Source: Letharia columbiana
Taxonomy: Eukaryota; Ascomycota; Lecanoromycetes; Lecanorales; Parmeliaceae
Direction: 5' to 3'
Length of the DNA stretch: 64,000 nucleotides
Assembly: GCF_014066305.1 (NCBI RefSeq)
Contig: NW_023501091.1
Location: 288,755-352,754, forward strand
The first letter of the stretch is position 1. Each line of letters begins with the position of its first letter. The translations under genes and the position numbers were made by a program. The notes beneath the pieces were generated by a model. The model ran no database searches, was not told the origin of the DNA, and saw nothing but the letters and a program-made list of their open reading frames with translations. Shown one piece after another: positions 14,624 through 64,000 of this stretch.

Positions 14624-15408
14624 TCAATCACTCTTTGGGATTTGAGCCTTGAAGCCGCGTCGGATCAGAAAACCCAGCAACCCTTTCTCTATCCTCGAGA
14701 ACTAGAATATTGTGAGCGCCGGACCTCAAGCCGCTCCAAGGACTTTTTTCACTTACAATCCCATCATTCTTTACAACGCCATCCTCGATCCAAATCGACC
14801 AAGAGCCCATCGTACTTGCCATGATTATGTCTGTGAAGAGCCTATCCCCAACTACAGCAATCTGACCTGGATGTTCCACCCGAATCTTTGGAATATTCTG
14901 TAAGTGCCTAAATACATCAGGGCCACATCCAGGCTTCTTTGTCGAATGCTTAAAAACATTGACCCCCGTGGCCTGTTCCAGGAGTTTGGCTTCTTTCCCC
15001 TCGGGGTCATCTTGTGTGCCGGCCGAGTTGCTGACGATCAACACACGAGCGCCAGGGAACATCTTGCGAAGAGATTCAAAATGTTTCTATTGATCTCAGA
15101 ATGCCATGTCTTGCTTTTCTTTCGGAACGGAATTCAAGAAACGACTGACACTGTGGGAGGAAACGAGCGAAATTGATTAGACGTACTTTGTATGGGCTAT
15201 GGATACTACTTTCTTTGGGTTTGGCAAAACAATTATCTTTGTCAAGTACAATAGCTCTGATATCAGGTCTCTGACCTCCATTGGCGGCGGTTAGAGCTGT
15301 AGCTATAGAAATTGGTACGCGATCAAAGGTAGGAACAGTAGCATGAGGTAGACATAGCGAGGGTTTTCGTAGTAAGCTGAAAACACTGAGCGTCGCCGAG
15401 ACATTCAT
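14624..15408 (-). CDS. GEP4: Mitochondrial phosphatidylglycerophosphate phosphatase
   Basis: Minus-strand exons 15408-15187, 15086-14757 and 14701-14624 give 209 aa. The HAD-type nucleophile motif is VLDKDNCFA, and the second metal site is VGDRLFTDI. The order matches Gep4, which dephosphorylates phosphatidylglycerophosphate to phosphatidylglycerol for cardiolipin synthesis in the mitochondrial inner membrane. The last exon (25 aa, FSRIEKGLLGF...RRGFKAQIPKSD) is easy to miss because exon 2 reads on in frame through the intron. The splice is supported by GTAAGT/TTCTAG and by family similarity of the C-terminus. Intron 1 is unusually long (100 bp; see the introner-like intron entry). Confidence 0.9.
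15087..15186 (-). other. Possible introner-like intron in GEP4
   Basis: A GTACGT...ATAG intron of 100 bp. Its 3' half shares blocks with the other long introns of this window, notably CCCACA-GTC, CTTGAA followed by CCGAAAG/TGAAGG plus AAA, and ATTCTGAGAT against ATTCCGAGAT in the JMJD7-like gene. It is the weakest of the five members. Confidence 0.45.
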
Positions 15409-31904: not shown

Positions 31905-34017
31905 ATGAGGGAAGTCAACTTCAGTATCCCAAATGTCAATAAAGCGTCGGTAGGCATTACCACTGCCCTATACGACCGTCGAGCTCTCGACTGCACCTCA
32001 ACTCTGCCATTGATCAACTCGCTCAACCATCTTGCATACCTCACGACATCTTCTGCGAGGATAAGAGACATCCTCACCATTGATGGCGGTGTGGAGAGGT
32101 TAGTATGCATTCTGAAGCAGGGCAGGAGCCAGGAAATGATGGAGATGTGGAAATGGAACCTAGCTTTTCAATGCGTTGTCAACATTGGTGTCCGTGGTTC
32201 AGAGAGTGTTCGAACGAGGGTCGTCGAAGCTGACATGGTACCTGTCATCGCAACGATACTTGACAACTATATCAAGGTCATTGACAAGTGTCGGGAAAAG
32301 GCCGAAAACGAAGCAAAAAGGCGGACACCGTTGCAGATCCCACAACCACGAAAGTGCCAGCAGAAATCCATAGCTTCTCCCACAGGCACTTTCGAACGGC
32401 AAACTTTCCAAGAACGGGTCAATGTGTTGCCTGACAACAGACCCTTTCGTCGTCATGAGCCTCCACCAGCAATAGAAATACCACAGCCTCTGTCTCCGCC
32501 CAATTTCGAGCAGCAACACCAACACCACCTGCACCAGGCTCCCGATGCTACGGCTATGGATCTGACTCCAACGCTGCCTCAATTTGCGACAATTACGACC
32601 CCCGAGCGGACTACATTTACGCGACATCACCACCATCATCACCACCATCACCACCATTACCACCATAGGAGCCAAGACGGTCGGCACCATGTTCATGGAG
32701 GGAGTACGAGCGGTAGCAGACACAATTCGATGCAGACAATAGCCGCAGCTGTACCCCCAATGGAACCGGGTGAGGGATTCGGACTTCGCCCCGTGCGCGA
32801 CGTTGACCGACTACCATCTATGTTACCTGCTCTACCTGCTCTCCAGACAGGCATCACTTCGCAGCCAGAATCTCCAACTACTCCAAATGCACCATCAATC
32901 CGTCCACCAATGCGTGGTACCAGGGACAGACGAAGACCATCTGTACGCCAACAGCAGTCCAACTCCGGCGACTCTGATGATGCCAATGGGGATGAAGCTG
33001 TTTCTGAAGCGTCTGGGACCAACGAGAACCTTGATGAACCCATGATAGACATTCAAGCAGCTGTGGATATCCAGGAAGCTGAAGACGAGGATCCAATGCT
33101 CGATGCTGTCACGACAACTTTAGGTCTCACAGCCCCAAATGCTGTATCGGAAGGTCAAGAAGCGCAAACCTTCAACATCACTCATCCGTCTGCCAATGAT
33201 GGAAGCATCATAAACGCCAACGTAACTCCGACTAATAACAATATCGGCTTTCCACAAGCTCCACAGCCAATGGGGGTTGTGAACGTAGCAAACCAAGCTC
33301 TAGCACAGAACACCCATGCACGCTATCTTCTCGATCGATCTGCGCCTCCAGGCATTTTGGCCGCCACCCCCCGGGATGAGGACGTGTTGATGTCGCTACA
33401 GCTTCTTGCCTACGTATCAAAATACTGTAATCTCAGGACGTATTTTCAACAATCTCATCTCGTTCCTAAATTGAAGATTGGCAATAACCTCAATGCCTTG
33501 GATGAGAACAATTCAAGCGATTGCCACGAAAGTGATAACTCTGACGAAGAGGAGTATCTGCTTTCAGACGACTTCAACATATTCCCGCTTGTTGAGAAAT
33601 TCACTGTCCGCCATCACTCGCAAGATATGCAGCATTGGGCTGGCGTCGTGATGCGAAATTTGTGCCGCAAGGACGACGCTCGTGGTGGCATACGCCAATG
33701 TGCTTACTATGAGTGTGGGAGATGGGAGCAATGGACTAGGCAATTTGCCAAGTGCCGTCGCTGCCGCCGCACAAAATATTGCAGCAAAGAGTGCCAGAAA
33801 AATGCTTGGGTATGTACAAATCAAATTTTCAAACTCATCGTCTCCGAGTTGGTGTAGAATCTTGGGCCACAAGACACATAAGAGGAGGGGGGGCCAATCC
33901 CTGCTTAACCCCCACAACACTGTCTCATTACTCAGGTCCCTGCTCCGAAGAGAACATGCTGACTCTGAATTCCCGAAGGTTTATCATCGACATTGGTGCC
34001 AAGTGGCGGCGCAGTGA
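31905..34017 (+). CDS. MUB1: MUB1/SamB-type MYND zinc-finger protein
   Basis: Exons 31905-33809 and 33979-34017 encode 646 aa. The N-terminal armadillo-like part (residues 1-130, LTIDGGVERLVCIL...) and the C-terminal MYND finger (C-X-X-X-X-C...CRRCRRTKYCSKECQ, completed by exon 2 as HRHWC) match Mub1/SamB. In yeast Mub1 is the partner of the Ubr2 ligase in Rpn4 turnover; SamB controls hyphal branching. The middle is low complexity with eleven His in a row at about residue 241. The last exon supplies the final finger ligands, so the 169-bp intron must be removed for a complete finger. Confidence 0.93.
33810..33978 (+). other. Introner-like intron in MUB1
   Basis: GTATGT...CGAAG, 169 bp. Shared blocks are CCCCACAAC, TGTCTCATT (33921-33929, exact in the JMJD7-like intron), TCCCTGCTCC (33937-33946, exact in the 2OG oxygenase intron) and GCTGACTCTGAA (33958-33969, exact in the PUS4 intron), the last containing the branch point. 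Confidence 0.75.
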
Positions 34018-34726: not shown

Positions 34727-36287
34727 CTAATCACGCTCTGGCGACTGCAATTTCCCCCAACCGTACGTCTCCGCGAGCCTTTTTTTCAGATAGCCCTCTG
34801 CGGTCACCGTCTTCACACCTTGCTGCCTCTTTTCCGTTTCTCTGTCACGTATCATGTCACTCGGGACAGCTTCTATCTCGATATGGTCCGAAGGATGGCA
34901 AAAGTATGCTATACTATACCTATCTTCACTCTCCCCTTCTGGGAAGACAACTCGGTGCACGGTACTCTTAAGCAGTCCATTCGTCCAGAAATGCATCAAA
35001 TCCCCAATATTAACGAGGATCGGTGGATAGGAGTCATCTTCTGTGCCAGGTGGTTGTATAGGTACGGGAGACCAGGACGAACTTCGAGTAAGGATCTCGA
35101 GGCCTGGCTGGGAGGCGCGCTGGAAAAGGAGGGTGAGGGAACCTATGCCTTTAGTGAAGTCATTCTTCTCTTTGAATCGTCTGAAACACTGGCGCTTACC
35201 ATAATCGCTGTGAGCTCCGGCTCGGATGTCGACGGTAGTGTCCAAAGATTTATCCATTTCGACTGCGGGATACTGCAGAAATCGCGCACCTTGGTATCAG
35301 CTCTCACCTGTTGCCCATAGGGACGCACACACATGAAGCAACCGAAGTACGCTGCCGGAAGAGCCTTGAGATGGATCATGTCGAGACGAGAACCAATCCT
35401 TGCCACCTTGGTTGGGATCGATCTGGGTCTAGTCAGGCAGGGGCAAATCAAGGAGCCGCACACAGTTTCATACTCTGAGACCAAGAGCAAAGAGGCGCAG
35501 GAGCTTAATGCAGAGCTCATGACAAAGTACTCCGAAATGATATAGCTCGGCTTCATGTGAAGCAAGAGATGGCGGTAAAGGCTGTTGTGCTTTGCCATCG
35601 GTAAATTCGCCAAAGTTCATTGCCCTAGTCAACAATGTCAGTCGTTACGGCACTGAACCCCGGGTTTGGAAGAGAACTCTTTAAAGTCTCCACGCTGTAG
35701 GGGTTAGCGATGTCTTGTACGGTTGAAAAACCCAAGTACCTTCTCTTGATGGTTTCGAAGTCAGCCTTACTCTTTCGAGAGGAATCCTAAGTCGCGAGAC
35801 ATGTCTTAGGAGCAGGGAACTCTTTAGATATGTCTGATGACTTATAGGACAGCGTCAATGGGGAAGAATCGCCTCGGAAAGTATAACGTACGGGTCTTTG
35901 GGTCCAATGTTTCTGAGTGCATTGACGACCAACCGATATTCTGGCAGTATGTGAGAGACGAGCTCAGAGGAAGCTCAACAGCGGAAGGGGTTTACATTGG
36001 CTTGGATAGCACATTCCTGTTTCTCTTCTATGGTTGATGAGAAGAATCTTTGTGACTATCCACATCATTAGAATTGTCTGTACATCTAGTAATTGCTTCG
36101 GTCTGACCAATGCAAAGGCATTATCGAGAGTCTGCTTCGTGAAACCTACTCCTTCACCCCTGACAAACACAAAGCCATATCGAGCAACCGCATCTACTAG
36201 CTGGCCCGCTGTGTCCGCTGCACTGGCTTCGGATATGTCAATGACTGGGATCTGTAGGCTTGAACCATTGCTCCGTCTGGCATCCAT
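34727..36287 (-). CDS. 2-oxoglutarate/Fe(II)-dependent oxygenase, nine exons
   Basis: Minus-strand exons 36287-36108, 36055-35996, 35940-35892, 35744-35740, 35694-35678, 35624-35474, 35428-35333, 35272-35200 and 35142-34727 encode 348 aa. The DIOX_N part begins LQIPVIDIS and includes YGFVFV, FFSSTIEEKQECAIQAN, GWSSMHSETLDPKTQKRGDFKEAMNFGEF. The catalytic domain has the HXD motif GAHSDYGSLTLLFQ, the distal His in TVHRVVFP and the 2OG-binding Arg in EDRYSIAYF. It belongs to the isopenicillin-N-synthase-like superfamily; the substrate is unknown. Exon 4 is only 5 nt. It is accepted because it completes the conserved DPKTQKRGDFKE stretch in frame. Confidence 0.88.
35745..35891 (-). other. Introner-like intron in the 2OG oxygenase
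   Basis: GTACGT...TCAAG, 147 bp, the only long intron among the eight of this gene. It shares TCCCTGCTCC (35809-35818 on the minus strand) and GGCTGACTTCGAAACC near the branch point with the MUB1 and PUS4 introns, plus a CTGTC...TCAG block. Confidence 0.7.
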
Positions 36288-45707: not shown

Positions 45708-47198
45708 ATGTCCAAACCAAAGGGTAAGGTGGTCGAAGGTGTCTTTGGTAAGACGTTCCATCTTTGACTTTCGCTTTTCTTATCTCTTCCTTCTTACTCA
45801 TCCATTGACCGTTTAGCGATAAACAAGCCCGCTGCCATCTCCTCCGCCCAGACAATCCGCAACCTGCAGCATCGTTTTAACCCTTCCGCCCTCTTTGCCC
45901 CTTGGCTTGCTGCTGAGCGCTCCAATCGCGAAATCGAGGTACGTACATTCCCGCGTAATTCCTTCCTGTCTGGTATAAAATTTGGGGTCACATGCCATCT
46001 TTCAGGAGTAGAAAGCCCCTTTACTCACTCCCCACAACTGTCTTGTTGTTCAGGTGAAACCCTATGTTCCGGCACCGAAAGGAAATCTTTACTCTCTGAA
46101 GTGACGCTGACTCTGAAATCTGCGTAGGAGCGCACTCACCGCAATCGCCGGAAGGATAAACGAGTTCAAGTCAAGATTGGCCATGGCGGCACTCTCGACC
46201 CTATGGCCACCGGCGTGCTCATCATGGGTGTAGGTAAGGGTACGAAGCGGCTACAAGGATTCCTCGAATGTACCAAGACTTATGAGGCTACGATACTCTT
46301 TGGGGCGGCTACAGACACATACGATACCCTAGGTAAGGTTCTTCGGAGGGCAGAGTATGGCCACGTAAGCAGAGAAAATGTGGAGAAGGCGTTGGGCAAG
46401 TTCAGGGGAAAGATCATGCAGAGACCGCCCATTTATTCGGCGTTGAGAGTGCAAGGGAAGAGACTCTATGAGTATGCCAGAGAAGGCAAAGAGGTTCCGA
46501 AAGAAATCGAAGGGCGGCCGGTAGAAGTGAAGGAACTCGAGATCGTGAACTGGATGGAGGGAGGGAGCCACAACCACGGTCTTCCCAAAGAAGACGCGGA
46601 GGATGAGGCAAAGGATCTTGCCGAGAAGGTATTGCATCTCGGAGAGGCTGTTGCGACGTCTGAAAACGCTAGTGAAGTTCAGTTCATGAACGGAACTGCA
46701 GGCACAGGGACCAAGAGGAAGCGTTCACTGGATGACGGTGATAGCGTGGTACCCAATAAAAACCCGGAGCTAGGACCTGAAGGGGAGTCTCAATGGCTCA
46801 TGTCAGGAGGCCTCCAAAACCCTGACCATAGCACAAAGCAGATCGATACTCATGCACAACAGAGCTCGCCACCACCAATAGAAGGCCCACCAGCAGTCAA
46901 ATTGCGCATGACAGTGACATCGGGGTTTTACGTTCGTTCACTCAGTCATGACCTCGGTGAAGTGGTGGGCTCACTAGCTTGCATGTGCGAACTAGTGCGT
47001 ACCAGGCAGGGCGACTTCGAGCTAGGCAAGAACGTGCTAGAATATGAAGACTTGGAGAAGGGAGAAGACGTGTGGGGACCAAAGGTAGAGCAGCTGCTTT
47101 CGGATTGGGAGAGTAGCAATGAAGACATGAATGGTGGGGCAGACAGAAGCGACGGGGGAAGAAAGAGACGAAGAAGAAATAGTAGTAGTGATGCATAA
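45708..47198 (+). CDS. PUS4: tRNA pseudouridine-55 synthase, TruB/Pus4 family
   Basis: Exons 45708-45747, 45817-45938 and 46128-47198 encode 410 aa. The TruB motif is GGTLDPMATGVLIMGVG with the catalytic Asp; further conserved parts are TKTYEATILFGAATDTYD, PPIYSALRVQGKRLYEYAREGKE and MTVTSGFYVRSLSHDLG. A hydrophilic insertion of about 90 residues separates the last two, as in other fungal Pus4. The enzyme makes Ψ55 in the T-loop of tRNAs. I prefer the ATG at 45708 (A at -3) to an in-frame ATG at 45675 with poor context. Intron 2 is 189 bp and belongs to the introner-like set. Confidence 0.94.
45939..46127 (+). other. Introner-like intron in PUS4
   Basis: GTACGT...GCGTAG, 189 bp, longest of the set. 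It has CCCCACAAC-CTGTCT and GCTGACTCTGAA (46106-46117, exact in MUB1). Its upstream part aligns over about 59 bp with the JMJD7-like intron (TTCCTGT...GAG-GAAAG-CCCCTT) without length change. Confidence 0.75.
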
Positions 47199-47405
47199 CA
47201 ACTTGGAGTACCCAGAGCATTTGAAAATCAATGGCCTGCTTATATGGATGGATGCTCGACGGGCATGCCTAGCGCCTGGAAATCTAAGATTAATGATACC
47301 CAAAATCTAGCGTAAGCTGCTCAACTCTTGCCCAGATTACCCGTCGCTATGCCATGTTGCGCGTGTACCAGGCGTTTGCTCATAAATCGTATCAGAAGAC
47401 TCAAT

Positions 47406-49087
47406 TCACTGCATTTGCGGCCTCACTCTACCCCACATTCTCTGTAGAAGTGAACTTGGCTTTCCAAGCGAGTCTTCTTCCTCTGGCTTTCCCATTTCTT
47501 CATTTTGAGTGCTTTCGTGATTAACGAAGACGAAGGATAAGAGGACGATACAGGCCCCAATCCAGTAAGATACGCTTGATGTCTGTGAGTATTCGATCAT
47601 CTGTCCAATCAAGGACAGTGGTATGGTCAGACTGAGGCCAACTGTGACTACCAAAGGTGACGTGAGCAACATTGAATATGCCCAACAGAGGTCCGAAACT
47701 AGAGAAGTCGCTGAGTTGATCTGATCTATTGTCTCAGCCATTTCCTAAACAGTGCTAGGGGTCACTTACCAATACGATAGCCAGGATACGCCTTGTAGGT
47801 GGCAATTCAAATGTCTCGATGCCGGTAAAATGAAGGATGAAGAAGCCCGGTAACAGTGTGATGAAGTTGAACAATCCAACGAAGCCGAAAAACAATGGCA
47901 TGTCCACTCTTGACTCGTCCCCTATCCTTTTCTTCATGAGAGTAGTGTAGATCCCATACATGACAGCGCTAGTGAAAGCAAGGACGTCACCAATGGCGAT
48001 TTCTTTGTGGGACTTGTGGGGGAAAGATCCCCGGTTCTTGTCTTGGTTACCAGTTATGTCGATGCTAGAGATCAATATGATGCCGGCCAGAGAAGCGAGT
48101 ACGCCAACAAGTTTCTTTATGGTGAACTTCTCTACGCTGAGCAGTGCACCAAAAATCAGAGTCCAGACACCTATTGCAACGTGAGCATGTGCACAAGGAT
48201 TGCGAGCGAGAGAGAGAGAGAGAGAGAGAGGCGCTATCTTACTGCTCGTTGATGTCAATATGGTTGAGCTAGCGACGGTAGTATATTCGAGACATGCTGC
48301 CACGAAGTAATTGGCCTGATTTTTCTGTTAGGATCAACCAGGATTGATTTGAATGTTATACACGTACTAGGAACTACGAAAGATCAGCCGTGTTTCGTTT
48401 CGATTGAGATGATTCCTACCCATAATATGCAAAATTCAAAGCTCAACTTCAGAGTTTCTCGAACGTTCAGACGCCTTTCTGAAGGACTTCCTTCCACTCC
48501 GGAGCTCTTCGATGGCTCTTCGATCAGTAACCGGCTACGCGGTGACCGGCTTGCTTCTTGAATGCCTCCGTCATCGTCAGGCTTGATAAAGGCTTGCTCC
48601 TCCTCTTCAACGATAGGCAAATAGTGGGTGGACCGATCATGTCCACGAAGAGCGCCCTTTATAGATCCGCCGGTTGCCCACAGCCTCTTTGCAGCAACCA
48701 GTAGCAGCAAGAGAGAGAAGAAGGATGAATTGACATAAGTGACAAAGTATGGTTTGGAGTAGCTATCATCTGCAAAAATTGTCTGCAGGTGAAGTTGTAA
48801 GTGTATGCTACCAGCTATTCGATCTCGACGAAACCTACACTTGCTAGAAAATTTGACGCTGTCCATAAAACTACAGTGGCCAGGAGCAGGATGATCCCAA
48901 TTGTATGCCGCCAAACGCCACGAAGTGGTTTCTGGTGCGGCGGAGGTGTTTTGTGAGACGACATTCGAGACCTCTGTGACCATGAGGAATCCGTAGATCT
49001 TCTACCTGCCTGCGAGTCTTCCGAGCGCGAATTTGGTACAGGCAAGACAAAATCGTCTGCTGGGACCGGAGCGAGAGGTTGACTCAT
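47406..49087 (-). CDS. EamA/SLC35F-type membrane transporter
   Basis: Minus-strand exons 49087-48839, 48782-48420, 48324-48243, 48170-47770 and 47720-47406 encode about 469 aa. Start is MSQPLAPVP at 49087. About ten membrane segments are visible, including IGIILLLATVVLWTASNFLAS, YFVTYVNSSFFSLLLLL, VWTLIFGALLSVEKF, LVSDLCWAYSMLLTSPLVVTVGLSLTIPLSLIGQM and SYWIGACIVLLSFVFV. These match the fungal YML018C/Thi74-type SLC35F group of vacuolar or endomembrane carriers; the substrate is unknown. The acceptor of intron 2 may lie 9 nt further on (AATCAG), removing three residues. Intron 3 contains a (GA)n run. Confidence 0.9.
48208..48230. repeat. (GA)n microsatellite in a transporter intron
   Basis: About eleven GA units (plus strand) inside intron 3 of the EamA/SLC35F gene; on the sense strand it is a CT run about 12 nt after the donor. 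Confidence 0.9.
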
Positions 49088-50066
49088 AGCTACTACCGGC
49101 TTCTCCAAGATGATTGTTGCCTGCTGCGGGTATGCATCGGGGTCCTTAAGCCTTCCACCTGATTTCCACGGCTTTTGTCTGGTCCCTGGTCATGGGAAAA
49201 ACAAAGACCGTAACGTCACAAGCTCGACTGTCACTTGCGGTCCCAGTAAGGTACCTCTGGATTGGGTCAGGTTCCTTTCGAAGGGAGAACCTGGAGCCAG
49301 TAACTAATTCCCGAAGATCCCAGACGCCGTGTAGTTATTGTCTATTGATGAGTCAAAGGAGACAATAAAGTAATGTTGTGACTACTGGAAGCAATCAGGG
49401 AAGATCGGGGTGGAAGCCTGGGAGCTTGAGGGATTAGCGTGTGCAGAAAAGTCCGCATGTTTTGGCGCGCGCTGAAAGAAACCCCACGGTCCCACCTCTG
49501 TCTTCAATCTCGTGATTGCTACTTAGACCTTCGAACAATATCAGTTGAAATCAATATCATTCAGATTGTTTGCTTCACACAAAACTCAGTCTAACACATC
49601 TCTGCAATTTAGATGACGTGAATCGATGGTCTTTAAATCATCTTGACATCTCTTTGAGACTGTAATGTCAAAAGCTCAATATATAGACGTCTATAAGAAC
49701 GTTGGCAACTCATTACCAATCCTAGGATCTCGAACTTTACTTGATCTCATGAGCCTTGAACAGAGCTGGTATGCAATCTTATATAACTCTTTACAATACT
49801 TCAGGCGGCGTGCAACAGGTGACCGAGAGGTTTGGGAGTTCTCAGTGCCAAGATTTGCAGACCTTTCTGCATATGCTAAGATCGGCGAAACTCACGGGCC
49901 GAATTTTTGCGAATCTACTGAATGGCTGTGCAACTCTTCTTGTCAGCACCACCTTTCTCTATTCACACTCTATCATTTAGACTTGTTGGCTTTTTGCATT
50001 CGCTACCAAAACCACACTCATTTTCAGTCAATGCATTATTGATACCCAAAGTATAGCTTGGCGACC
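49088..50066. promoter_or_regulatory. Divergent upstream region, transporter / DOT1
   Basis: 979 bp between opposite starts. A 125-codon plus frame at 49665-50042 begins with ATG and ends just before DOT1. It has no known motif and is more likely leader sequence or chance. Confidence 0.5.
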
Positions 50067-51604
50067 ATGGGCTTCTTTGACAGCATTCAGAAGCCCGGCT
50101 TCACAGCGGCCAAGGGCAAAAATGTTCACATCAAGCAGGAAGTTGTGAAGACGGCTTTGAACCCCAAAAAGACATTCGTTCCATTTCCACAGCATCTCAA
50201 AAAACGCTCTTTACCAGATAAAAAGGCTACGGTGTTGGATAACCAGACTGCCAAACTATCTCCCAAGTCTCGAGCCCAAAATCCCCGGAAACGCCCAGCT
50301 TCGACCCCGCAGCGTCTTGAATCTGATAGTGACGATGACGTATCTGATCATGATCTTGGGGATGCAAGAAAACGAGCACGGAGAACTAGTGACGTGGAGC
50401 CCGATCTAAAACGGCGGATCCGTAGCAGAAAGGCCTTCTCGGAGGAGGATGGTGGGGTGTTTCCCATGGTCCATGCAGTAGATGTTGCTTCTCTGGGCAA
50501 GCCCACGAAATACAAAGCCGCCTTCCCGAATAACCCGCAGGCTATCGAGATTCATTTGCAGTACCCGTCTGCTTCTCAGAGCGAGAAGTATGCCTTTCAT
50601 CGACATGTCCAAAAGAGGATATAGCTAATGATCGCAGATACGAGTTGGTTGTGCCAATCCTTAATGATGATTTCAAGGCTTTGGAAGACATTAGAGAAGT
50701 CATGGAGACCATCATCAGCAACTACCTTCCAAGCGCTGAAGCAGCGAAAATGCAAAATGACAGCACGGGACTGATTAGGCGACTCAAGCGAGCCACGGAG
50801 AGGCGTGCCGGGAACGAATACACGGTCTTTGTGCAGGAATGGAATGACACCTTGGTTGATCTCAGGAAAAACGGGACTATTTCTAAGACCATCGACGAAT
50901 GGAAAGTTGTCGACCTAAAATTGCTCGAGCGAATCCTGACACAAACCTACTCACGAACAGTTTCACCTAGGGTACACACGTTACGCCACTACCAGAACGG
51001 GACGGATAATGTGTACGGCGAGCTACTTCCCAAATTCATCTCCCTAATTCTCAAACAGGACGTCAAGATGATGTCCGATCAGATCTTTGTTGATCTCGGG
51101 TCCGGAGTCGGGAATTGCGTACTTCAAGCCGCTCTGGAGGTTGGATGCGAGAGCTGGGGCTGTGAGATGATGGACAATGCTTGTGATCTTGCCGAGCTTC
51201 AGGAGAAGGAATTCAACGCTCGGTGCCGGCTATGGGGTCTTTCCGCGGGTGACATTCATCTTGAACGAGGCGATTTTCTCAAGAATCCTGCGATCCTGAA
51301 GATTCTCCAGAAAGCAGATGTAGTCCTTGTCAACAACCAGGCATTCACTCCGAACCTGAACGAAGACTTGACAAATCTGTTCCTAGACCTTAAAGAGGGA
51401 GCCAAGATCGTGTCACTCAAATCCTTCGTTCCCCATGGGCATAAGATCACTTCCAAAAATTTGTCGGCTGCATGCAATAGACTCGAAGTCGTCCAGAAGA
51501 CTTATTTCTCGGCCTGCGTGAGCTGGACTGAAACTGCAGGCACTTACTATGTTTCGACAAAGGACAGCTCTAAGGTCCAGGCCTTTGCTGAAAAGAACAT
51601 GTGA
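50067..51604 (+). CDS. DOT1: Histone H3 lysine-79 methyltransferase
   Basis: Exons 50067-50587 and 50638-51604 encode 495 aa. The start ATG has ideal context (GCGACCATGG). The N-terminal 170 residues are basic and Ser-rich with RKRP and KRARR clusters, fitting a nucleosome-binding and nuclear-targeting region. The DOT1 domain covers about 175-490: YGELLPKFIS, motif I VDLGSGVGNCVLQAAL, CEMMDN, GDFL and the active-site NNQAF, then VSLKSFVP. It methylates H3K79 without a SET domain and takes part in silencing and DNA-damage checkpoints. Confidence 0.96.
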
Positions 51605-51815
51605 GCGACTTTCCAGGATGGGGCACGGAAAGCCTATCACAAGCACAAACAGAGAGTATGGTCAGTATTATCTAAGGTCTAGTAGCGAAGCTTTTGGTAC
51701 TGCATAAACTTGGAGTTTAGCGGCTCGAGAGATACCCAGGAGCATTCGAAGAGCATTGGATGGCGGCATTTTCTCCGAAGGCACGATTGAGGTTTTTCAT
51801 AGACGCGTGCATTGG

Positions 51816-52535
51816 TCAGGAAAATTTGGATCCATCGTTCATAGCATCAGCTTCCTGTCCCATTCGTGCCATCCACCGATCGACCAACTCCTTATTCTCA
51901 TGTCGCAACTTCTGAGAATGCTCTTCGGCCATGTTCAGCTGGAGCGTTAACGATACGGTCTCGTCATGCACGTCCTGCTGATCAATCAAACACGTCTCTC
52001 AACAAGAACAGAGCGCATTGACTCAAACCTCTAGCAATTTCGCCTTCCCCCTGAGTTCCTCATCTCTGTCCCTCATCCCCGTAGTCAACATCGCTTTCTC
52101 CTTCGAAAGCTCGCCAATACGTTTGCTGTCCAATGACGATTGTATTCTCAGCTTCTGCAACTCCTCTGTGACGCTCTGGAGCTTGGCCTCCGTCAAACCC
52201 CTGCTACGCTGAGCCTCACTCAAGTCCTGGCGCACTTTGGTGATTGTTTCTCCAGTGGTGGGACTACCGAGTACCGCTTTCTCTCGGCTTATCTTGCGGT
52301 CTTTGGGATTGGGTGACGATCTTGGCTCTTCTTGTAACCTAGTAACTTCTGCTGACCGAGCGGCTTGGAGGGTAGCTGTTCGATCAGCCAATTTGGCGTC
52401 TGATGCACTTTGTCAATTTCCGACATGGACTTCTAGACGGAAAAACAAACAGCGATTATATACAGCTTCATTTGCCTTCTCCTTCTTGTCCCTCTCATGC
52501 AGCGCACTCAGGTAGTCATCCCGCCAGGATGGCAT
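51816..52535 (-). CDS. ATG16: Autophagy protein Atg16
   Basis: Minus-strand exons 52535-52451, 52399-52029 and 51974-51816 encode 204 aa. The N-terminal [26 protein letters not shown] is the Atg5-binding helix. The rest is a coiled coil ([12 protein letters not shown] ... [25 protein letters not shown]). Intron 1 uses a GTTTGT donor and CATCAG acceptor, giving the family-like [11 protein letters not shown] junction. Atg16 dimers bring Atg12-Atg5 to the phagophore for Atg8 lipidation. The gene shares its upstream region with YPT7. Confidence 0.92.
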
Positions 52536-53029
52536 ATTCAGATGTACATGATGTTTTGAGAGTTGATCTGTTGCATGTTGGTAGACTTCTGTCTCCGTGA
52601 TGGATTCTGAACGCTCGATACAAGTTTCCTATTTGCTTTGAAGCTCCATTGTGCTGATACATTAGATGACCGATCGAACGCACAAATGGCTGTGGGCGCG
52701 ATTTCGATAGGGCTGAAGGATGATCGACATTTAAGTCGGTTTGGCTACCGTGACATGGCCGAGCAGGCGCAGCTCTTTGGCGTCAACTTCTCCGGAAACA
52801 GCCCAAATCGTCACCCTTCGGCTTTACTGAGGAACACGAGTACACCGCACTTAACGACTGCTGTTGATAACCTCCGTCTCAGCCAGTTGTGAGAACTCTT
52901 AGACAATAAAAGCAAAGCCCAGCTCTACTTTTGCTCAGCAGGAGGAGGCTTCAGCAAGAACTTCTAGCTTGGCGGGCGTGTTTAACCGTTGTTTTCATTC
53001 ATCTTATCGTCTGAGAGTATTCGATCAAC
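52536..53029. promoter_or_regulatory. Shared divergent promoter, ATG16 / YPT7
   Basis: 494 bp between opposite start codons. It drives an early autophagy gene one way and the late autophagosome-vacuole fusion Rab the other. No defined motif is claimed. Frames within it have no recognisable product. Confidence 0.55.
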
Positions 53030-53933
53030 ATGGCCTCGAGGAAGAAAGTCCTGCTTAAGGTACCTCTACCGCTCAGTACAAAGGTAATGGTCAATCACTA
53101 ACATCCAGCCACAACTAGGTGATTATCCTTGGCGATAGTGGAGTTGGGAAGACTAGTTTGATGAACCAATATGTATGTACAGCAGGACGCATGGCCTTCC
53201 TGCGCAGCTTTGGCGGCTAAGATTCATCTTCAAATCAGGTCAACAAGAAATTCAGCGCGAGCTACAAGGCAACAATTGGGGCGGACTTCCTGACGAAAGA
53301 GGTCTTGGTGGACGATCGATTAGTCACAATGCAGGTGTGGGCACAAGCTGCTTGACGCTGTATCAAGGGCTAACTGTTGTCTAGCTTTGGGATACCGCTG
53401 GTCAAGAGCGGTTCCAGTCGCTAGGCGTGGCATTTTACAGAGGGGCCGATTGCTGCGTCCTGGTGTATGACGTCAACAACTCAAAGAGTTTCGATACTCT
53501 GGACAGTTGGAGAGACGAATTTCTGATCCAGGCCAGCCCTCGAGATCCCGAGAACTTCCCTTTTGTTGGTCAACCTCGAGCAGTCCTGCGTTTTGCTGCC
53601 TAACAAGACACAGGTTGTCCTTGGAAATAAAATTGATGTAGAAGAAAATAAGCGAATGATATCTTCGAAACGAGCCATGACGTTCTGCCAGTCGAAAGGC
53701 GGAATTCCATACTTTGAGACCAGTGCTAAAGAGGCTGTCAACGTTGAGCAGGCATTCGAAGGCATGGTGCACCCAAACTTTTCGTTTATGTCTATATCTT
53801 CGTGCTGACATAGGTACTTTCAGTAATCGCCAGGAACGCCTTGGCACAAGAAGAATCGGAGGAGTTCAGTGGTGACTTCTCGGATCCTATCGACATCCAC
53901 TTGGACAGGGAGAGCGATGGTTGTGCGTGCTAG
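53030..53933 (+). CDS. YPT7: Rab7-type small GTPase Ypt7
   Basis: Exons 53030-53059, 53119-53172, 53239-53334, 53385-53564, 53614-53761 and 53824-53933 encode 205 aa. G1 is GDSGVGKTS, effector loop KATIGADF, G3 [10 protein letters not shown]4 GNKIDV, G5 ETSAKEA. The C-terminus ends CAC, a geranylgeranylation site. Ypt7 directs homotypic vacuole and autophagosome-vacuole fusion with HOPS. The last intron must begin with GC (53762) to keep the conserved [14 protein letters not shown]; a GT alternative inserts five residues there. Confidence 0.95.
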
Positions 53934-54532
53934 TCGCGCTTAGTCTCATGTGTCCTGGTTTCTGATCGAAATGATAGCCATGCATTTTCCATGAAGAGCA
54001 TGGGCGGCAGAAGGTGCAGGTCTTTCACGCAGCAGGGATAAAGTATCTCTAATTGTGCACCAAATTGGAGGACTTAATGGCAGACCCATTCTGATACGAG
54101 ACATCCCGTATTGAACAGATCCCGCATGTACATACACACCGAGGTCCTATATCATATACCCGGTTTATGACTCATACTATGAATTAGCAACCACGCACAG
54201 TGCTTGCCTTTCTTGGTTCGATGCTTGCAGACTATAATCTCGTAATTGCGCTGGCCAAGAGACTTGAGACAGAGCAGGTAACGTAAGCAAATCATAAAGA
54301 ACGATAGCTCGTCTATTTGGAGCGTGCTTGGATCGAGTTTGAATGAGGAGAAGAAGTCGAAGAGTTTGTTCGATAGTGCCATCATCTTTGGATTCGTCCA
54401 ACGCAGCATTTATACATGTGAATGCCGTAACCATGCACACCTTCAGTGCAAGTATGATACCAAATCCATGCAATAGAAACCTCTACGCCCTGGGCCTTGA
54501 GACAGAACCCCGTCCCTTTTGGATTCTCGTAT
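53934..54532. other. Convergent 3' flank, YPT7 / hydrolase-like gene
   Basis: 599 bp. Minus frames at 54152-54473 show no recognisable motif and no splice route into the neighbour. Treated as non-coding. Confidence 0.5.
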
Positions 54533-57291
54533 CTATAACTTCGACCTTACGCCTTCCAACCGAAATTTGACATCTTTGAGCGCCTTAGTAGATGGTTTCC
54601 ACTCGTCAAACTGTTTGATCAACTCCGTAATCTCTCCATACAGCTCTGTCCGCACGTAGTCCTCTTCCAATACACCCCGCATAGCAAACGGCAAAATGTA
54701 CGGATTTTGTGACGTGGTTGCACCGTCGCGGTGGAATTGTGGAGAGATCTCACCGAGGGAAGTTGTTTCAAGAGCATGCTCGACAGCCAGATAATAACCA
54801 GCTTCGTCGTCATAAATTCTGGAATGTCCCTCACCGCCGTAGAGACTACCGGCAAGTGGGCTGCTCAGCTCTCGGATCACGCCATGATCTGATATGCCAA
54901 GATTACGAAGTTTCAACGCGAAGCCCACTAAGTGGGTAAGGAAGTCAGGGGCGTGGAGTCGGCCGTCTACGAAGACAGCCCGAAAGATATGTGGGTGGCT
55001 CACGCAGCCGAATGTAGAGGACTAAACGAATATGTTAGCTGGACTCCAAATACTCCACACACAAGCCCACCTCTAGTGAAACGAGCTGATCGTCTATACT
55101 GCCAACATAGACAACTTTTACCCCAAACCTCAAGGCAACGTCCAGGGCTGCTTCATAGTCCTTTGACACTTGACTATTGGGAAGTGCAAAATCGAAAAGC
55201 TCTCCAGCCGAGCCACTTATCCATCGAGACTTGTAGTCAGCGAAAGGGCCAAGATTGACTCCTGCCATAGCACAGACGCCAATCTTTGCGGAATTAACGC
55301 ATCCGAATGCTATCAGTTTTGCAACCAGCATCATGGCTACAGGCACTCCTTGGCTGTGACATGCAATCATGACAAAGTCGGCTCTTCGTATTTTTTCGAT
55401 CCAATTGAGCATGAGCTTCCACAATAGGTCAATGCGTTCTGCGATTTTGCCTTCTCCCTCTAGAGCTACCTTTTCGATCTCACATGAAAAGCCCTGATTT
55501 TGGGTCCATCTCTGAATGGCGCTGGCTGCACTATTGGCAAAACGAATAGACGTGCCTGTTGGTTGACCAAGGACGGAGCGAATCAACGGTGCCGGGAAAT
55601 AGCCATGAACACCCTAAAGAAAGAAGATTAGCCACGTGAATGAGACCCACGCTCAACGAACGAGCCAAGCTTACAATGGCTAAAGCTCTCCTAACCCGTG
55701 GTGGGTTTTGAACAATGTCGACGTGCTTTGGTTCCAAAGTCGATCTCAATTGCAACAACCTGCTGATCTGCTGGATCAGACTTGGTCTTCCCACTGTACT
55801 GTATGTAGTTTTAAATGAAGGAAGAAGTAAATTCTCGGGCATGCCCTTTGATTTGGAACCGGCATCGACCTTGGGCTTTGTTTTCGAATCCAAAGGGATA
55901 GCGTCGGGGTTTGAATCTGATTTGGCATTATCTCCAGAGCCCCGAGGCTTCTTGGTATCCGCAGCTACTTCTAGTGATTGCGGCCTCTGTCTTTTGCTGA
56001 CCTTATTTGGAACGCCTCCCGCTTCGTCTACTACTGCATTCTCCGGCTTGGATTGCAATGAAGACCCAGCAAGAGCCAATTCCCCAATTTCACTTCCAGG
56101 ACGTGTCTTTTCGACATCACTCTTCGGCTGATCTCTGGACCAAAACGCCCAGCCATACGATGGTTTTGCACCATCTGTGGGTTGCTGAGGAGTTTGAGGG
56201 GTGGACATAGGACAAGATCCCGCATCGCTCACCTTTCCAGTTTGCGGTTCTGTTCCGAAGGAGTCGCGTTGTGGATTGGAAGCTACGCCAATTGCGCTTG
56301 CCGATGAGCTGCTTTTTGTCTGTGTGGATGCATTACTCCATAAGCTGAGCCAAGAGCGTGGGGCTTCTTCTTGCTGTGCAGATGGAGAAACAGGACTCGG
56401 CTCTGAATTTCGACGTGGTTTGGGGGATGCTGAACCATCTTGAAGAACATCTGAGATAAAACTTTGGGGGGTATTCTTACCCGCGCTACTGGCATCGTCA
56501 TCACGCCGAGCAGTACTTGTTCCATTCTCTGTTACGGTTTCAGACTTCGAGAACCAATTCAACCAGCTCGTGGATTCGTTGGCAGCTTTAGGTACCTCTG
56601 ACACATGACTCTTGGATTCTGGTCGAGTGTCGCAGTTTTTGGCAGTATTTTCCGGGGTACCGTCATCAGACTTTTCACCTTCTGGAGCCGTACTGGAGCC
56701 GTTTCGTGATTCATACTCTGTGAACTGATCTCTTTCATTCTTGGATGAACTCCTGTCCTTGGCAGCGCCGTTCGCAGGACCTATAGCGTTCGATGTGATG
56801 TGAAGTTTAGTAGTAGTGGCGGCTAGAGGCAAAGACCTGCTGGAGCTTCCTATACTTTTTGATAGGTAGAGTGCTGGGGATTTGAGAGGAGTTGTGGAAA
56901 GCTCTGGGGTGTGAGCCCGCGCTGACGCTAGAGCCTCAGATGCGGCCCCGCCTGCAGCTGAAATACTCTCTTTTGCTACTTGGGTGACTGGGCTGGACTT
57001 TTTCCCGCGTGGCCACGTTCCGCCGTACCATGTCTTGCTCGACTGAGGCTATAGAAGATTAGTCTCATTCCGGACAAGCTGACCATCCTATGCGCTTACA
57101 GAATTCGCTCCATTGACGGAGGAGTGGATGGGCTCGACACCTTCAGGCTTAATTGATGGTTTTGATTGTTCAACAGCAGCTTTGGGCGAAATTCTACTTT
57201 GTAATTCGGGCCCTTGGGGTAAGGGCGCTTCTGCTGATGCAGGTTCGGGTTCTGCCTTGGGGTTTGGCTTTGACCGTTTTCGAGGTCCCAT
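54533..57291 (-). CDS. Large alpha/beta-hydrolase-like protein of unknown role
   Basis: Minus-strand exons 57291-57100, 57048-55675, 55613-55071 and 55021-54533 encode 865 aa. Residues 1-500 are mostly low complexity, Ser/Pro-rich with scattered Trp motifs (KTWYGGTWPR, SWLNWFSKSE, YGWAFWSRDQ). The C-terminal 350 residues are conserved and fold-like: GVHGYFPAPLIRSVLG, ACHSQGVPVAMML (a nucleophile-elbow-like SxG context), GVNLGPFADYKSRW, SHPHIFRAVFVDGR and LKDVKFRLEGVRSKL. It resembles fungal proteins of the YML020W kind, recalled from memory. Lipase-like activity is possible but unproven. It is divergent from SPB1, 284 bp apart. Confidence 0.85.
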
Positions 57292-57575
57292 AAAGCAAAG
57301 GTGGGTGCGGAGGATGAGGAGTCAGAATCTCTCGATCTCTGACATCCTCTCTCAGCCTTTGTAGACGAAAGATTCCTGCGTATTCAGGTGTGACTTTTGT
57401 ATGTACAGGATATGACACTGGAGTGGATGCGGTCAATCATGCGGCTCTGCCTGATCCCTGCTCTAATAGCCGCGGCCCCCACGTCTTTTAGCGTGATGAT
57501 CATCCCACGTCAAAAATTTGGCGAAGGCAAGAGACTGATTGTCCAAATTCCTCAGCAATACCCAACTTCAGCGCC

Positions 57576-60186: not shown

Positions 60187-60249
60187 CCTTGGCTACTGCG
60201 ATGGGAGATCAGTTCTATAATAGTGGTCTGACACAAGGCTTGGTGCACT

Positions 60250-61579
60250 CTATGGTGCTTTTTTGAGCTCTGTTGAAGCCCAAGCCATATGTCGAAGAAA
60301 AGAATTCGAAGCAAAGAATGTGCCTTCGAAGTCCATATCGTACCCTGCGGAACTGTGAGCACTAGCGAAGCAATCTTGCCTCGAATCTTTGACCTACAAT
60401 AATTGACACTGCAACATATGCCCTCGTCCGAGCTATCCTGTGAGACCTTATGATACCTTTCTTCTTGATCAGTCTCAAAATTTCGCCAATTCTAAGCACG
60501 AAGATCTCACCAGCATGCAGGGAGATACAACATATCGCCTGGATCAAGCCTTATGCGAAGTGGTTTGCTTAGAGATGAGAATCTGGTTGCATTCTCTTCT
60601 GGCTTGTCTGGATCCCATACAGCACAGGGCACTTGAGCAGGAGGATCGTCAGGATCGAGGGACATGTCTGCAGCATAGGCGGCAGATGGCATAAATTTCT
60701 CGTTGATGCAAGCCGTCTCCACTGGGGCCAATAGCACAAAATCTTTTGATCCAACTATTTGACAATAGATGTTTTCATAATTGTCTCTGTGCAAAGCTGT
60801 GGTGCTATGCTTGTTACCTATCCACAGATTGATCGCGTCGGGCTCCTTTTGTAGGGCTATTGACGCCCAGCGAATGTCTGCTTCTACATCACGGTACAGA
60901 TGTGAGTATTCGCCGCGAAGATTGTCATTTTCTAAGAGAAATAAGTCAGTGGCCGTAGCCTTAGATTGAAGACATGGCCATACGGGCTTGCGAATACTTG
61001 ACCAACTCGACCGTCGTCTGAGCGTTTGAACTTTGTAAGTAGCTGAGAAAGGTAGAAAACGGTTCGTCCTACGGCAATCTCGGAATCAGGATTTTCCTTC
61101 AAAGCAAGAGTTCAAGCAATGAGACAATCTGAAGGGGTCTTTCGCTCCCAGAGCACGCTGTAAAATTCAAGACTTATTCTAAAACAGGAACAAGTTTCTT
61201 CGAAAATGTAAATACCAATTCAAAAGGCTTTACGAAGTATGTCGAGCCGTCCTCGGGCCTTTTCTGGACCGAGTCCGCATTACTTTATCGACTTTTAGTG
61301 TCCATTCGACTGTCTAGAATGGCCTCGTACTGACCCGTGAGGTGTGATGGCTACTCCAACAGGAATGTCTTTCATAATATCCTGAAGGTAATGAGCATTC
61401 CATGTACGCACAGCAAGCCATTTCGAACAGCCTCGGCGCACAACTAATGGTCGATTTTTGGCCACGTATCTCATGAATTCGAGAGGACTAGGCTCTTCAT
61501 ACAAGACATCTATGTCGCCGTTGAGCTCGTGATATGTCGTCAGCATATCGGTCGTAGCCTCAGCTATTATACTTGACAT
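60250..61579 (-). CDS. JmjC-domain protein, JMJD7-like
   Basis: Minus-strand exons 61579-61335, 61282-61216, 61068-60984, 60931-60511, 60456-60398 and 60344-60250 encode 323 aa. N-terminal: PLEFMRYVAKNRPLVVRRG, then TPHGNADSV, KPFELDEPFSTFLSYL and YSQAQNDNLRGEYS. The Fe(II) site is TTALHRDNYENIYCQ (H..D) with the second His in LYLPACWYHKVS. The C-terminal part is GICCSVNYWYDMDFEG, ending in a short helix. This is the JMJD7 type, a 2OG-dependent lysyl hydroxylase of TRAFAC GTPases in animals; the fungal role is unclear. Intron 2 (147 bp) is introner-like. The start lies about 100 bp from the RIP-like block. Confidence 0.9.
61069..61215 (-). other. Introner-like intron in the JMJD7-like gene
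   Basis: GTATTT...CCGTAG, 147 bp; the other four introns of the gene are 52-54 bp. Its 3' 70 bp align with the MUB1 intron almost end to end, with TGTCTCATT exact and most differences C/T or A/G transitions. Confidence 0.75.
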
Positions 61580-61969: not shown

Positions 61970-62360
61970 TAATACGTCTTAGCGCGTTTATATTAAGTCG
62001 CTTTTTTCTTCTATAGAACTCTATAGTTAATATAACTAAGTATTCTATCTTTATATTTTAATAGATTATAAATTTAAATTATATTTAATAATTATTTTAA
62101 TAATAATATAATCTATCGCTATAATTATAATTATTTTTAAATATTTATATCTATTATAATAAAGATAATTATAATTATAAAAAGCTTTATTAATCTTTTT
62201 AATATAGAAAATTCTTACTTTAAAATAATTATTTTAAATTTAAATAATTATAATTTATTTATAATTTAAAAGTTAAAGACTATCGCTTAAACGCTTTTAC
62301 TTTCTATTTAAAATAAATTAAATTAAAATAAAATATATCGTATTTAATTAAAACTATCGA

Positions 62361-63832: not shown

Positions 63833-64000
63833 CTTTAATTTTAAAACCTCTACTATCTTACTAATCTAATAAGCAATTTTAATCTAATAAAATATCTTCT
63901 TAACGTCGACGTTATTTATATTTATATCAATTAAAGAGTAATTATACTAGCCTTTCGAATCGACGACTTTATTAAAATAGCACACTTATATCTTAATCTA

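What the first reader, a model, noticed from the sequence alone, without database searches (positions are those of the whole stretch)
33810..33978. A family of related long introns (introner-like elements) in unrelated genes
Of about 70 introns reconstructed here, most are 45-95 bp. Five are longer (100, 147, 147, 169, 189 bp), in GEP4, the JMJD7-like gene, a 2OG oxygenase, MUB1 and PUS4, and these five resemble one another. The MUB1 copy is the hub. It shares TGTCTCATT with the JMJD7-like intron, TCCCTGCTCC with the 2OG oxygenase intron, and GCTGACTCTGAA (containing the branch point) with PUS4, all in the same order and close to the acceptor. The genes are not homologous and both strands are involved, so spread of an intron sequence is the simplest reading. 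Introner-like elements are known from some Dothideomycete fungi; whether this family has been described I cannot tell.
Basis: partly seen in the sequence, partly recalled or inferred. Interest (0 to 1): 0.9.

Follow-up and report, generated by a model that had tools for sequence, protein, structure and literature searches.

The report
Self-copying intron family in lichen fungus
Four introns in this stretch of a lichen-forming fungus's DNA are copies, most of them badly worn, of a spreading intron found at close to two hundred places in the genome, a kind of element known from other fungi that shows how new introns can arise.

Summary
An iterated profile trained without the window or its allelic contigs finds the 2OG-oxygenase, PUS4, MUB1 and JMJD7-like introns and nothing else in the window. 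GEP4 is not found.

The best-kept copy is the 2OG intron, not MUB1: 40 scored genomic matches including itself, 34 of them full-length. End patterns find 190 places in three subfamilies (A 62, B 94, C 34), some of them alleles; reversed-pattern controls give 0. Flanks of 39 A loci share almost nothing else. Splice junctions agree with homologues for aconitase (120 of 120) and 2OG (109 of 120).

Each subfamily consensus folds into a long hairpin from which copies have decayed, with little compensation. No target-site duplication is seen in 42 A copies. The MUB1 intron is most simply a gain: 7 of 120 homologues carry it clearly, 105 do not.

RNA-mediated copying is inferred; splicing in RNA is untested.

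The parts
35745..35891 (-). Introner-like element, subfamily A (147 nt), intron of the 2OG-Fe(II) oxygenase gene, phase 1; donor GTACGT 35891-35886, branch site GCTGAC 35765-35760, acceptor CAAG
   Evidence: 40 scored genomic matches including itself at 78-100% identity, 34 of 40 covering query base 1 to 145 or further; 127.6 bits in the 33-copy model, of which it is a member; spliced gene in frame; junction crossed without gap in 109 of 120 listed homologues, 117 of which span it
35740..35744 (-). 5-nt microexon AGAAG between the element and a 45-nt ordinary intron (residues QK of HSETLDPKTQKRGDFKEA, with the last base of the exon before)
   Evidence: This splicing gives an open frame and the TQKRGDFKEA-like stretch of homologues
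33810..33978 (+). Decayed element in the MUB1-like gene, phase 0; nearest to the PUS4 intron in pairwise alignment, unplaced in clustering
   Evidence: Held-out profile E 3.6e-11 after iteration, 0.004 before; z 10 against the PUS4 intron; singleton; 7 of 120 listed homologues, those 89-96% identical, read into a donor-like sequence here
45939..46127 (+). Element of a long B-like subgroup (189 nt), intron of the PUS4/TruB-like gene, phase 0
   Evidence: Held-out profile E 1.7e-12 after iteration, 0.06 before; matches at C25:90355 (72%) and C3:761567 (74%), and allele on C53 (96%); clusters with L046, L033 and L004 copies
61069..61215 (-). Decayed element in the JMJD7-like gene, phase 0
   Evidence: Held-out profile E 8.3e-8 after iteration, no hit before; singleton; alleles on C53 (99%) and C73 (98%) and no other match
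15087..15186 (-).
   Evidence: No hit in the profile searches; weak single alignments only

Best explanation
The four introns are members of a superfamily of fungal introner-like elements: spliceosomal introns that have multiplied into unrelated genes. An active copy was a full intron, GT to AG, that folds as RNA into a long hairpin bringing donor and branch site (in subfamily B also the acceptor) together. Copies were inserted into exons in the sense direction, with no target-site duplication, and were spliced out at once, so the protein was kept. After insertion the splice signals changed least; the hairpin and the rest decayed about neutrally. Most likely route of copying: the excised, structured intron RNA is placed in another transcript or in broken or open DNA of a transcribed gene (reverse splicing or RNA-templated repair) and becomes DNA by reverse transcription. 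Shown: the family, unrelated hosts, splice boundaries that fit frames and homologues, hairpin consensus sequences, near-neutral decay, no target-site duplication in subfamily A, same-strand clustering, and a phylogenetic pattern for MUB1 most simply read as a gain. Inferred: splicing in RNA, the RNA intermediate and the enzyme that copies it. The confidence given is for the family, its spread and its decay; the RNA route has about 0.8, shared between reverse splicing and RNA-assisted repair.
For: Copies: 40 scored matches of the 2OG intron including itself, 34 full-length; 62 A, 94 B and 34 C places by end patterns with up to 3 mismatches, controls 0. Nhmmer on 53 sequences (226.5 kb, most of them picked because they hold an A copy): 78 merged hits at E <= 0.01, 98 after iteration, against 0 in reversed sequence. 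Unrelated hosts: flank-to-flank DNA matches between 39 masked A loci number 11, 10 of them other members of the superfamily; Pfam hits in 10 of 10 spliced proteins tested out of 40 loci, different families except two MFS. Splicing fits: aconitase junction gapless in 120 of 120 listed homologues; 2OG in 109 of 120. Gain: MUB1 intron clear in 7 of 120 listed homologues, all 89-96% identical; 105 run on without it. Hairpins: consensus A -47.8 kcal/mol, z -6.3; B -56.1, z -6.3; C -53.6, z -7.1. Decay: substitution rate 0.109 in stems, 0.099 in loops, 0.051 in splice signals; 229 pair-breaking single changes against 10 kept double changes. No target-site duplication above shuffled flanks in 42 A copies. 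Copies within 1 kb of each other: 22 pairs against 0.7 expected for a uniform spread, 20 on the same strand.
Against: No RNA-seq: splicing is inferred from frames and homologues. B ends form inverted repeats, which a DNA transposon would also have. Some A copies (for example L036, L043, L016, L035) have no clear coding signal in the 90 nt on each side, so a minority could lie outside genes. Ten random 5-kb pieces held no copy, so the spread is patchy. The PUS4-type consensus (5 sequences, two of them overlapping parts of one copy) folds less strikingly, z -2.9 against mononucleotide shuffles, and the window copies do not fold better than shuffles to any clear degree. In MUB1, P0011, P0074 and P0081 (68-82% identical) also depart right after the same tryptophan, so introns at this place may exist in more distant species: parallel gains, or an older intron lost many times. 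I saw no site filled in one haplotype and empty in another, but did not look for one genome-wide.
Confidence: 0.9

Rival explanations
1. A non-autonomous DNA transposon (MITE-like) whose terminal inverted repeats happen to contain splice sites, moved by a transposase elsewhere in the genome, as proposed for most introners outside ascomycetes.
For: Subfamily B ends are inverted repeats: 14 of the first 17 bases match the reverse complement of the last 17 in the 8-copy consensus, my count from the two ends printed; all three subfamily consensus sequences are foldback structures.
Against: No repeat of 3, 4, 5, 6 or 8 bp at any tested offset exceeds the 95th percentile of label-shuffled flanks in 42 A copies (the 3-bp best, 5 copies, equals it); element ends coincide with the splice sites; neighbours are on the same strand (20 of 22 pairs under 1 kb). 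B and C were checked for duplications only by eye on the copies printed.
Confidence: 0.15
2. Copies inserted by repair of double-strand breaks using excised double-stranded intron RNA (the model proposed for Hypoxylon stwintrons), not by reverse splicing. This is one of the two RNA routes covered by the best explanation.
For: Seamless insertion, symmetrical hairpin, no target-site duplication: the features used for that model (PMC8469720, passages). Nothing here separates it from reverse splicing.
Against: Clustering in the same gene and strand, two copies abutting exactly at a splice boundary (L068) and one 5 nt from an existing donor point to transcripts and splice sites rather than random breaks, but these are only a few cases.
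Confidence: 0.35
3. Ordinary introns that look alike because splice signals, branch site and base composition are constrained.
For: The best-matching words contain the branch site; GEP4 shows that weak likeness can arise.
Against: 78-88% identity in 39 other places, 33 of them over the whole length, reversed controls empty, and a held-out profile that picks only these introns in 64 kb.
Confidence: 0.01

Closest known systems
Introner-like elements of Dothideomycetes (Fulvia fulva, Dothistroma septosporum, Zymoseptoria tritici and relatives)
   Same: Spliceosomal introns multiplied in unrelated genes, several families per species, decay into ordinary introns (PMC4457414, part 1 of 4 of the text read; a term search of the rest); symmetrical or stable structure and seamless insertion as reported second-hand in PMC8469720 (passages).
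   Different: Other class (Lecanoromycetes, lichen-forming). I compared no Dothideomycete sequences, so sequence kinship is untested. Copies here are older (median 14 differences in 147 nt from consensus) than the 98-99% identical ones quoted for F. fulva and Z. tritici; D. septosporum is said there to have less similar ones too.
Sister stwintrons and cropped sister introns of Hypoxylaceae and Xylariaceae
   Same: Terminal inverted repeats, hairpin or double-stranded RNA potential, no target-site duplication, seamless insertion (PMC8469720 and PMC12403724, passages).
   Different: The copies examined here are single GT-AG introns with one branch site, not an intron inside a split donor; one pair of abutting copies (L068) leaves the frame open if removed as one block.
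Introners spread as DNA transposons (algae, dinoflagellates and others)
   Same: Intron families in unrelated genes; inverted ends in subfamily B.
   Different: No target-site duplication found in subfamily A, and splice sites are not taken from one. PMC9860276 (passages) calls ascomycete families outliers with neither inverted repeats nor duplications; B here does have inverted repeats.

Membership tests
Fungal introner-like elements | Many highly similar introns in unrelated genes of one genome | tested here: met
   190 places in three subfamilies by end patterns, some of them alleles, e.g. C145 and C9; flanks of 39 A loci unrelated
Fungal introner-like elements | Element equals intron: GT to AG with branch site, removal restores the frame | tested here: met
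   of 40 A loci two (L046, L048) lack the usual donor end and three (L025, L043, L045) the usual acceptor end
Fungal introner-like elements | Stable symmetrical secondary structure, lost as copies decay | tested here: met
   Consensus z -6.3, -6.3, -7.1, PUS4-type -2.9; window copies z -1.6, -0.1, -0.3, +0.9; divergence against folding energy rho 0.45, p 0.003
Fungal introner-like elements | Seamless insertion without target-site duplication | tested here: met
   42 A copies; aconitase site crossed without gap in 120 of 120 listed relatives. B and C by eye only
Fungal introner-like elements | Introns are gains, absent from orthologues | tested here: met
   MUB1: of 120 listed homologues 7 read into the intron, 105 run on, 8 end otherwise, three of these at the same residue. 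Aconitase: all 120 listed run on, though carriers would rank lower in that list. Proteins from intron-aware annotation are silent; not done for PUS4 or JMJD7
Fungal introner-like elements | Still multiplying (98-99% identical copies) | tested here: inconclusive
   Closest pair in unrelated genes 97.3%, next closest 91.1%, among 42 A copies
Fungal introner-like elements | Spliced in RNA | not testable with these tools
   No transcripts at hand
DNA-transposon introners | Target-site duplication | tested here: not met
   (subfamily A only)
DNA-transposon introners | Terminal inverted repeats | tested here: met
   Subfamily B consensus ends; in A the pairing runs from base 4 to 127, the start of the branch site, and in C from base 9 to 136 of 144
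Stwintrons | Internal intron splits donor, branch site or acceptor of an outer intron | not tested
   Not searched for; the L068 pair abuts rather than nests

The most novel reading that the evidence does not exclude
Lichen-forming Lecanoromycetes carry their own large introner system in which the active form is a hairpin intron RNA that inserts into transcripts at or beside existing splice sites. Evidence of this kind: copies of different subfamilies pile up in the same gene and strand, two copies abut exactly at a splice boundary in a gene that looks like a DNA polymerase X (recalled motifs), and one sits 5 nt from an existing donor, creating a microexon. Many of the longer introns of these fungi would then be decayed introners.
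Probability: 0.35. Interest if true: 0.8.

Novelty: new member of a known kind. Interest (0 to 1): 0.62.

Why it matters
How new introns arise is an old open question. In fungi, the papers I saw describe introner-like elements from Dothideomycetes and, as repeated stwintrons, from Xylariales. A system with three subfamilies, hairpin consensus sequences and a closely related sequenced species (Letharia lupina) makes gain, empty sites and insertion rules directly testable in a third class, in symbiotic fungi. It also bears on annotation: the deposited L. lupina 2OG protein lacks residues at the element and its microexon.

Tried and rejected
Rejected: GEP4 as a member. Rejected: MUB1 as source copy; its intron has no other genomic match at E <= 0.001 and it scores 13 bits in the A model. 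Rejected: repeat-induced mutation as the cause of decay; C-to-T is lowest before A, 18 of 417. Rejected: maintained RNA structure; RNAalifold finds 7 pairs and 0 compensated ones, and stem and loop rates are alike; against that, 121 single changes keep a pair and 10 double changes do. Rejected: tandem duplication as the cause of clustering; 18 of 22 pairs under 1 kb join different subfamilies, counted from the list (four copies in one gene on C49 give five of these pairs, so pairs are not independent).

Weak or empty: a codon-usage test gave sense > 0 in 32 of 48 loci, against 31% at random positions, and sense > antisense in 34 of 48; too weak to call single loci. Rfam on four sources: 0 matches. 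ARAGORN on L010 and L041: none. My 2OG gene model probably starts one exon (35428) 6 nt early: homologues lack its residues TQ there.

Literature, judged from listings only: introner with lichen (2 papers; PMC11889510, on Pleosporales, was not opened), spliceosomal introns or intron gain with lichen-forming (20 of 283 listed), introners with ascomycete since 2021, introner-like with Lecanoromycetes or inverted repeats, Letharia with introns (15 of 16 listed), Parmeliaceae and related terms (10 of 226 listed). None of the listed titles reports such elements in lichen fungi; most subscription papers are not in this library. The supplement of PMC9860276, which lists its species, could not be read; it used GenBank annotations of April 2020. 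Torriani 2011 and van der Burgt 2012 were not read; I know them through PMC4457414, PMC8469720 and memory.

Full report
What was claimed. Five longer introns in unrelated genes of the window resemble one another and may be introner-like elements.

Check of the observation. Coordinates and lengths are right and the shared words exist. Interior alignments against 1000 dinucleotide shuffles give z 10.0 for MUB1-PUS4, 7.8 for MUB1-2OG and 7.7 for MUB1-JMJD7; PUS4-2OG is marginal (2.0), and PUS4-JMJD7 (1.3) and JMJD7-2OG (-0.3) are not significant. The word TCCCTGCTCC shared by MUB1 and 2OG is, however, out of register in the alignment.

Further copies in the genome. The window lies on contig C56 of a 52,243,142-base assembly in 161 contigs. 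MUB1 has no other match at E <= 0.001. JMJD7 has only its alleles on C53 and C73. PUS4 has an allele on C53 and two diverged matches, 72% and 74%. The 2OG intron has 40 scored matches including itself, the others at 78-88% identity, 34 of the 40 running from its first base to base 145 or further; 49 candidates existed and only 40 were scored. Aligned, these 40 mostly have a GT donor and an ATCAAG-like acceptor; L046 and L048 lack the usual donor end, and L025, L043 and L045 the usual acceptor end. A 27-base pattern of the 3' end found 55 places and a 29-base pattern of the 5' end 34, each with up to 3 mismatches and 0 for the reversed control; their union is 62. Some places are alleles: L012 and L013 agree at 99.8% over 3.1 kb.

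They are introns in unrelated genes. Of the 40 loci, I printed 26 spliced proteins and sent 10 with clear frames to Pfam. All 10 had a family match: MFS (twice), alpha/beta hydrolase, aldehyde dehydrogenase, short-chain dehydrogenase, GNAT, Kelch/DUF4110, aconitase, IMS polymerase and a D-serine dehydratase domain. Five matches above the curated cut-off span the junction, two more span it below the cut-off, three do not span it. For the aconitase copy all 120 listed homologues (of 7997 that passed) cross the junction without a gap. For the window's 2OG gene the nine-exon model gives one open frame (348 aa); of 120 listed homologues 117 span its junction and 109 do so without a gap. The closest named relatives are among the exceptions: Letharia lupina lacks KRGD, Alectoria fallacina one residue, and the A. 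sarmentosa model skips the stretch, which may be mis-splicing in their annotation. The model includes a 5-nt microexon between the element and a 45-nt intron. With the copies masked, flanks of 39 A loci share 11 DNA matches at E <= 1e-5, 10 of which are other members of the superfamily; L010 and L011 share only the intron, at 97.3% over 146 nt. Intron phases, by an open-frame rule, were 1 in 24, 2 in 9 and 0 in 7 of 40.

A superfamily. A profile of 42 full-length A copies, run on 53 sequences of 226.5 kb (most picked because they hold an A copy), gave 78 merged hits at E <= 0.01 and 98 after iteration; reversed sequence gave 0. The iteration took in the window introns, so I repeated it with the window, L003, L004, L005, L007, L008 and L009 left out of training: the four window introns were found at E 5e-37, 1.7e-12, 3.6e-11 and 8e-8 in the last round, and nothing else in the window under 0.5. 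Before iteration MUB1 stood at 0.004, PUS4 at 0.06 and JMJD7 was not seen, so the link rests on intermediate copies. GEP4 was not found. Of 48 further sequences clustered, 8 form B, 7 C, 5 a PUS4-type group, 5 are A variants, 4 form two pairs and 19 stand alone, MUB1 and JMJD7 among them. Pattern searches gave 94 B places and 34 C places, controls 0. Badly decayed copies are missed by these patterns, and alleles are counted separately. Ten random 5-kb pieces, three of them 15-25% GC, had none.

Structure and decay. The majority consensus of A (the same for 33 and 42 copies, apart from one undecided base) folds to -47.8 kcal/mol against -26.9 for shuffles (z -6.3), a 42-pair hairpin from base 4 to base 127, the start of the branch site. 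B (8 copies) folds to -56.1 (z -6.3), pairing base 2 with base 154 of 155; C (7 copies) to -53.6 (z -7.1), base 9 to 136 of 144. The PUS4-type consensus is weaker, z -2.9 against mononucleotide shuffles. The window copies do not stand out (2OG z -1.6, JMJD7 -0.1, PUS4 -0.3, MUB1 +0.9). Substitution rates are 382 of 3505 in stems, 165 of 1665 in loops and 49 of 966 in splice signals; single changes break a pair 229 times and keep one 121 times, double changes keep one 10 times and break one 6 times. RNAalifold finds 0 compensated pairs. So the hairpin fits the mobile ancestor, and mainly the splice signals are kept afterwards. Copies lie 8-33 differences from the A consensus, mean pairwise distance 17.4% against 19.3% for a star. 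No repeat-induced mutation signature is seen.

Insertion. In 42 A copies no short repeat at any tested offset exceeds the 95th percentile of shuffled flanks. In B the first 17 bases match 14 of 17 bases of the reverse complement of the last 17 (my count). Copies cluster: 22 pairs lie under 1 kb against 0.7 expected for a uniform spread over the whole assembly (a generous null, as genes fill only part of it), 20 on the same strand, while of the 11 pairs at 2-5 kb 2 share the strand. Pairs are not independent, since one gene on C49 holds four copies. Eighteen of the 22 join different subfamilies, so tandem duplication does not explain it. In L068 two copies abut exactly, and removing both as one block joins frames of 133 and 128 codons in what looks to me, by recalled motifs, like a DNA polymerase X gene.

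Gain. The MUB1 exon was searched against 5.8 billion proteins; 1393 passed and 120 were listed. After the motif before the intron, seven listed proteins (89-96% identical) read into a donor-like sequence, 105 run on into the HRHWC tail that the window gives after splicing, and 8 end otherwise. Of these 8, P0011, P0074 and P0081 depart right after the same tryptophan, so other lichens may have an intron at or near this place. Entries from annotated genomes are spliced models and do not speak to the intron. Many entries have no named source, and the read-through tails show intron-blind calling for at least some, so I take the intron as most simply gained in the window's close relatives.

Organism. 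Best named homologues are Letharia lupina (97%), Alectoria and Stereocaulon for 2OG and Lepraria finkii for MUB1; Letharia belongs to Parmeliaceae, Lecanoromycetes. From memory, 52.2 Mb in 161 contigs fits the published L. columbiana assembly; no call confirmed this (searched for it). Three contigs carry the JMJD7 locus at 99.4% identity over 2.1-2.3 kb, in line with the three genotypes reported for Letharia thalli (PMC10512270, passages).

Reading. These are introner-like elements by the features I could test, except proof of splicing and of current activity. RNA-mediated copying is the most likely mechanism, mainly because insertion is seamless, in sense, gene-clustered and tied to a hairpin ancestor; reverse splicing and RNA-assisted break repair cannot be separated here. 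A DNA transposon is less likely because duplications are missing in A, but B's inverted ends keep it open. The PMC9860276 statement that ascomycete families have no inverted repeats does not hold for B, as it does not for Hypoxylaceae (PMC12403724, passages).

Noticed in passing
window 62001-64000; L080, L082, L085: GC falls to 0.188 at the window's end, and three of ten random 5-kb pieces are 15-25% GC: large AT-rich compartments, perhaps repeat-induced mutation.
   Followed up: no
window 45939-61215 against C53 and C73 (L003, L007, L008): The right part of the window has near-identical counterparts on two other contigs (96.6-99.4% over 2.1-3.2 kb), probably alternative haplotypes; the introns are shared.
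   Followed up: partly
L068:403-703: Two elements abut with no exon between them inside one gene; removing both as one block gives a long frame.
   Followed up: partly
P0241 (Letharia lupina), P0242 and P0243 (Alectoria): The deposited 2OG proteins of the closest named relatives miss residues at the element and microexon site (KRGD in L. lupina), so their annotation may mis-splice there.
   Followed up: partly
P0011, P0018, P0019, P0021, P0027, P0074, P0081, P0097: Other MUB1 proteins end abnormally within a few codons of the same place, suggesting separate introns near one position (parallel gains) or an older intron.
   Followed up: no
L017:518-1646, minus strand: Five members of the superfamily lie in a row in about 1.1 kb of one locus whose spliced protein looks like a secreted glucanase (recalled likeness).
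   Followed up: partly
L010:2515-2570 and L041:2504-2559: 56-nt match at 91% that looks like part of a tRNA, not called by ARAGORN.
   Followed up: partly
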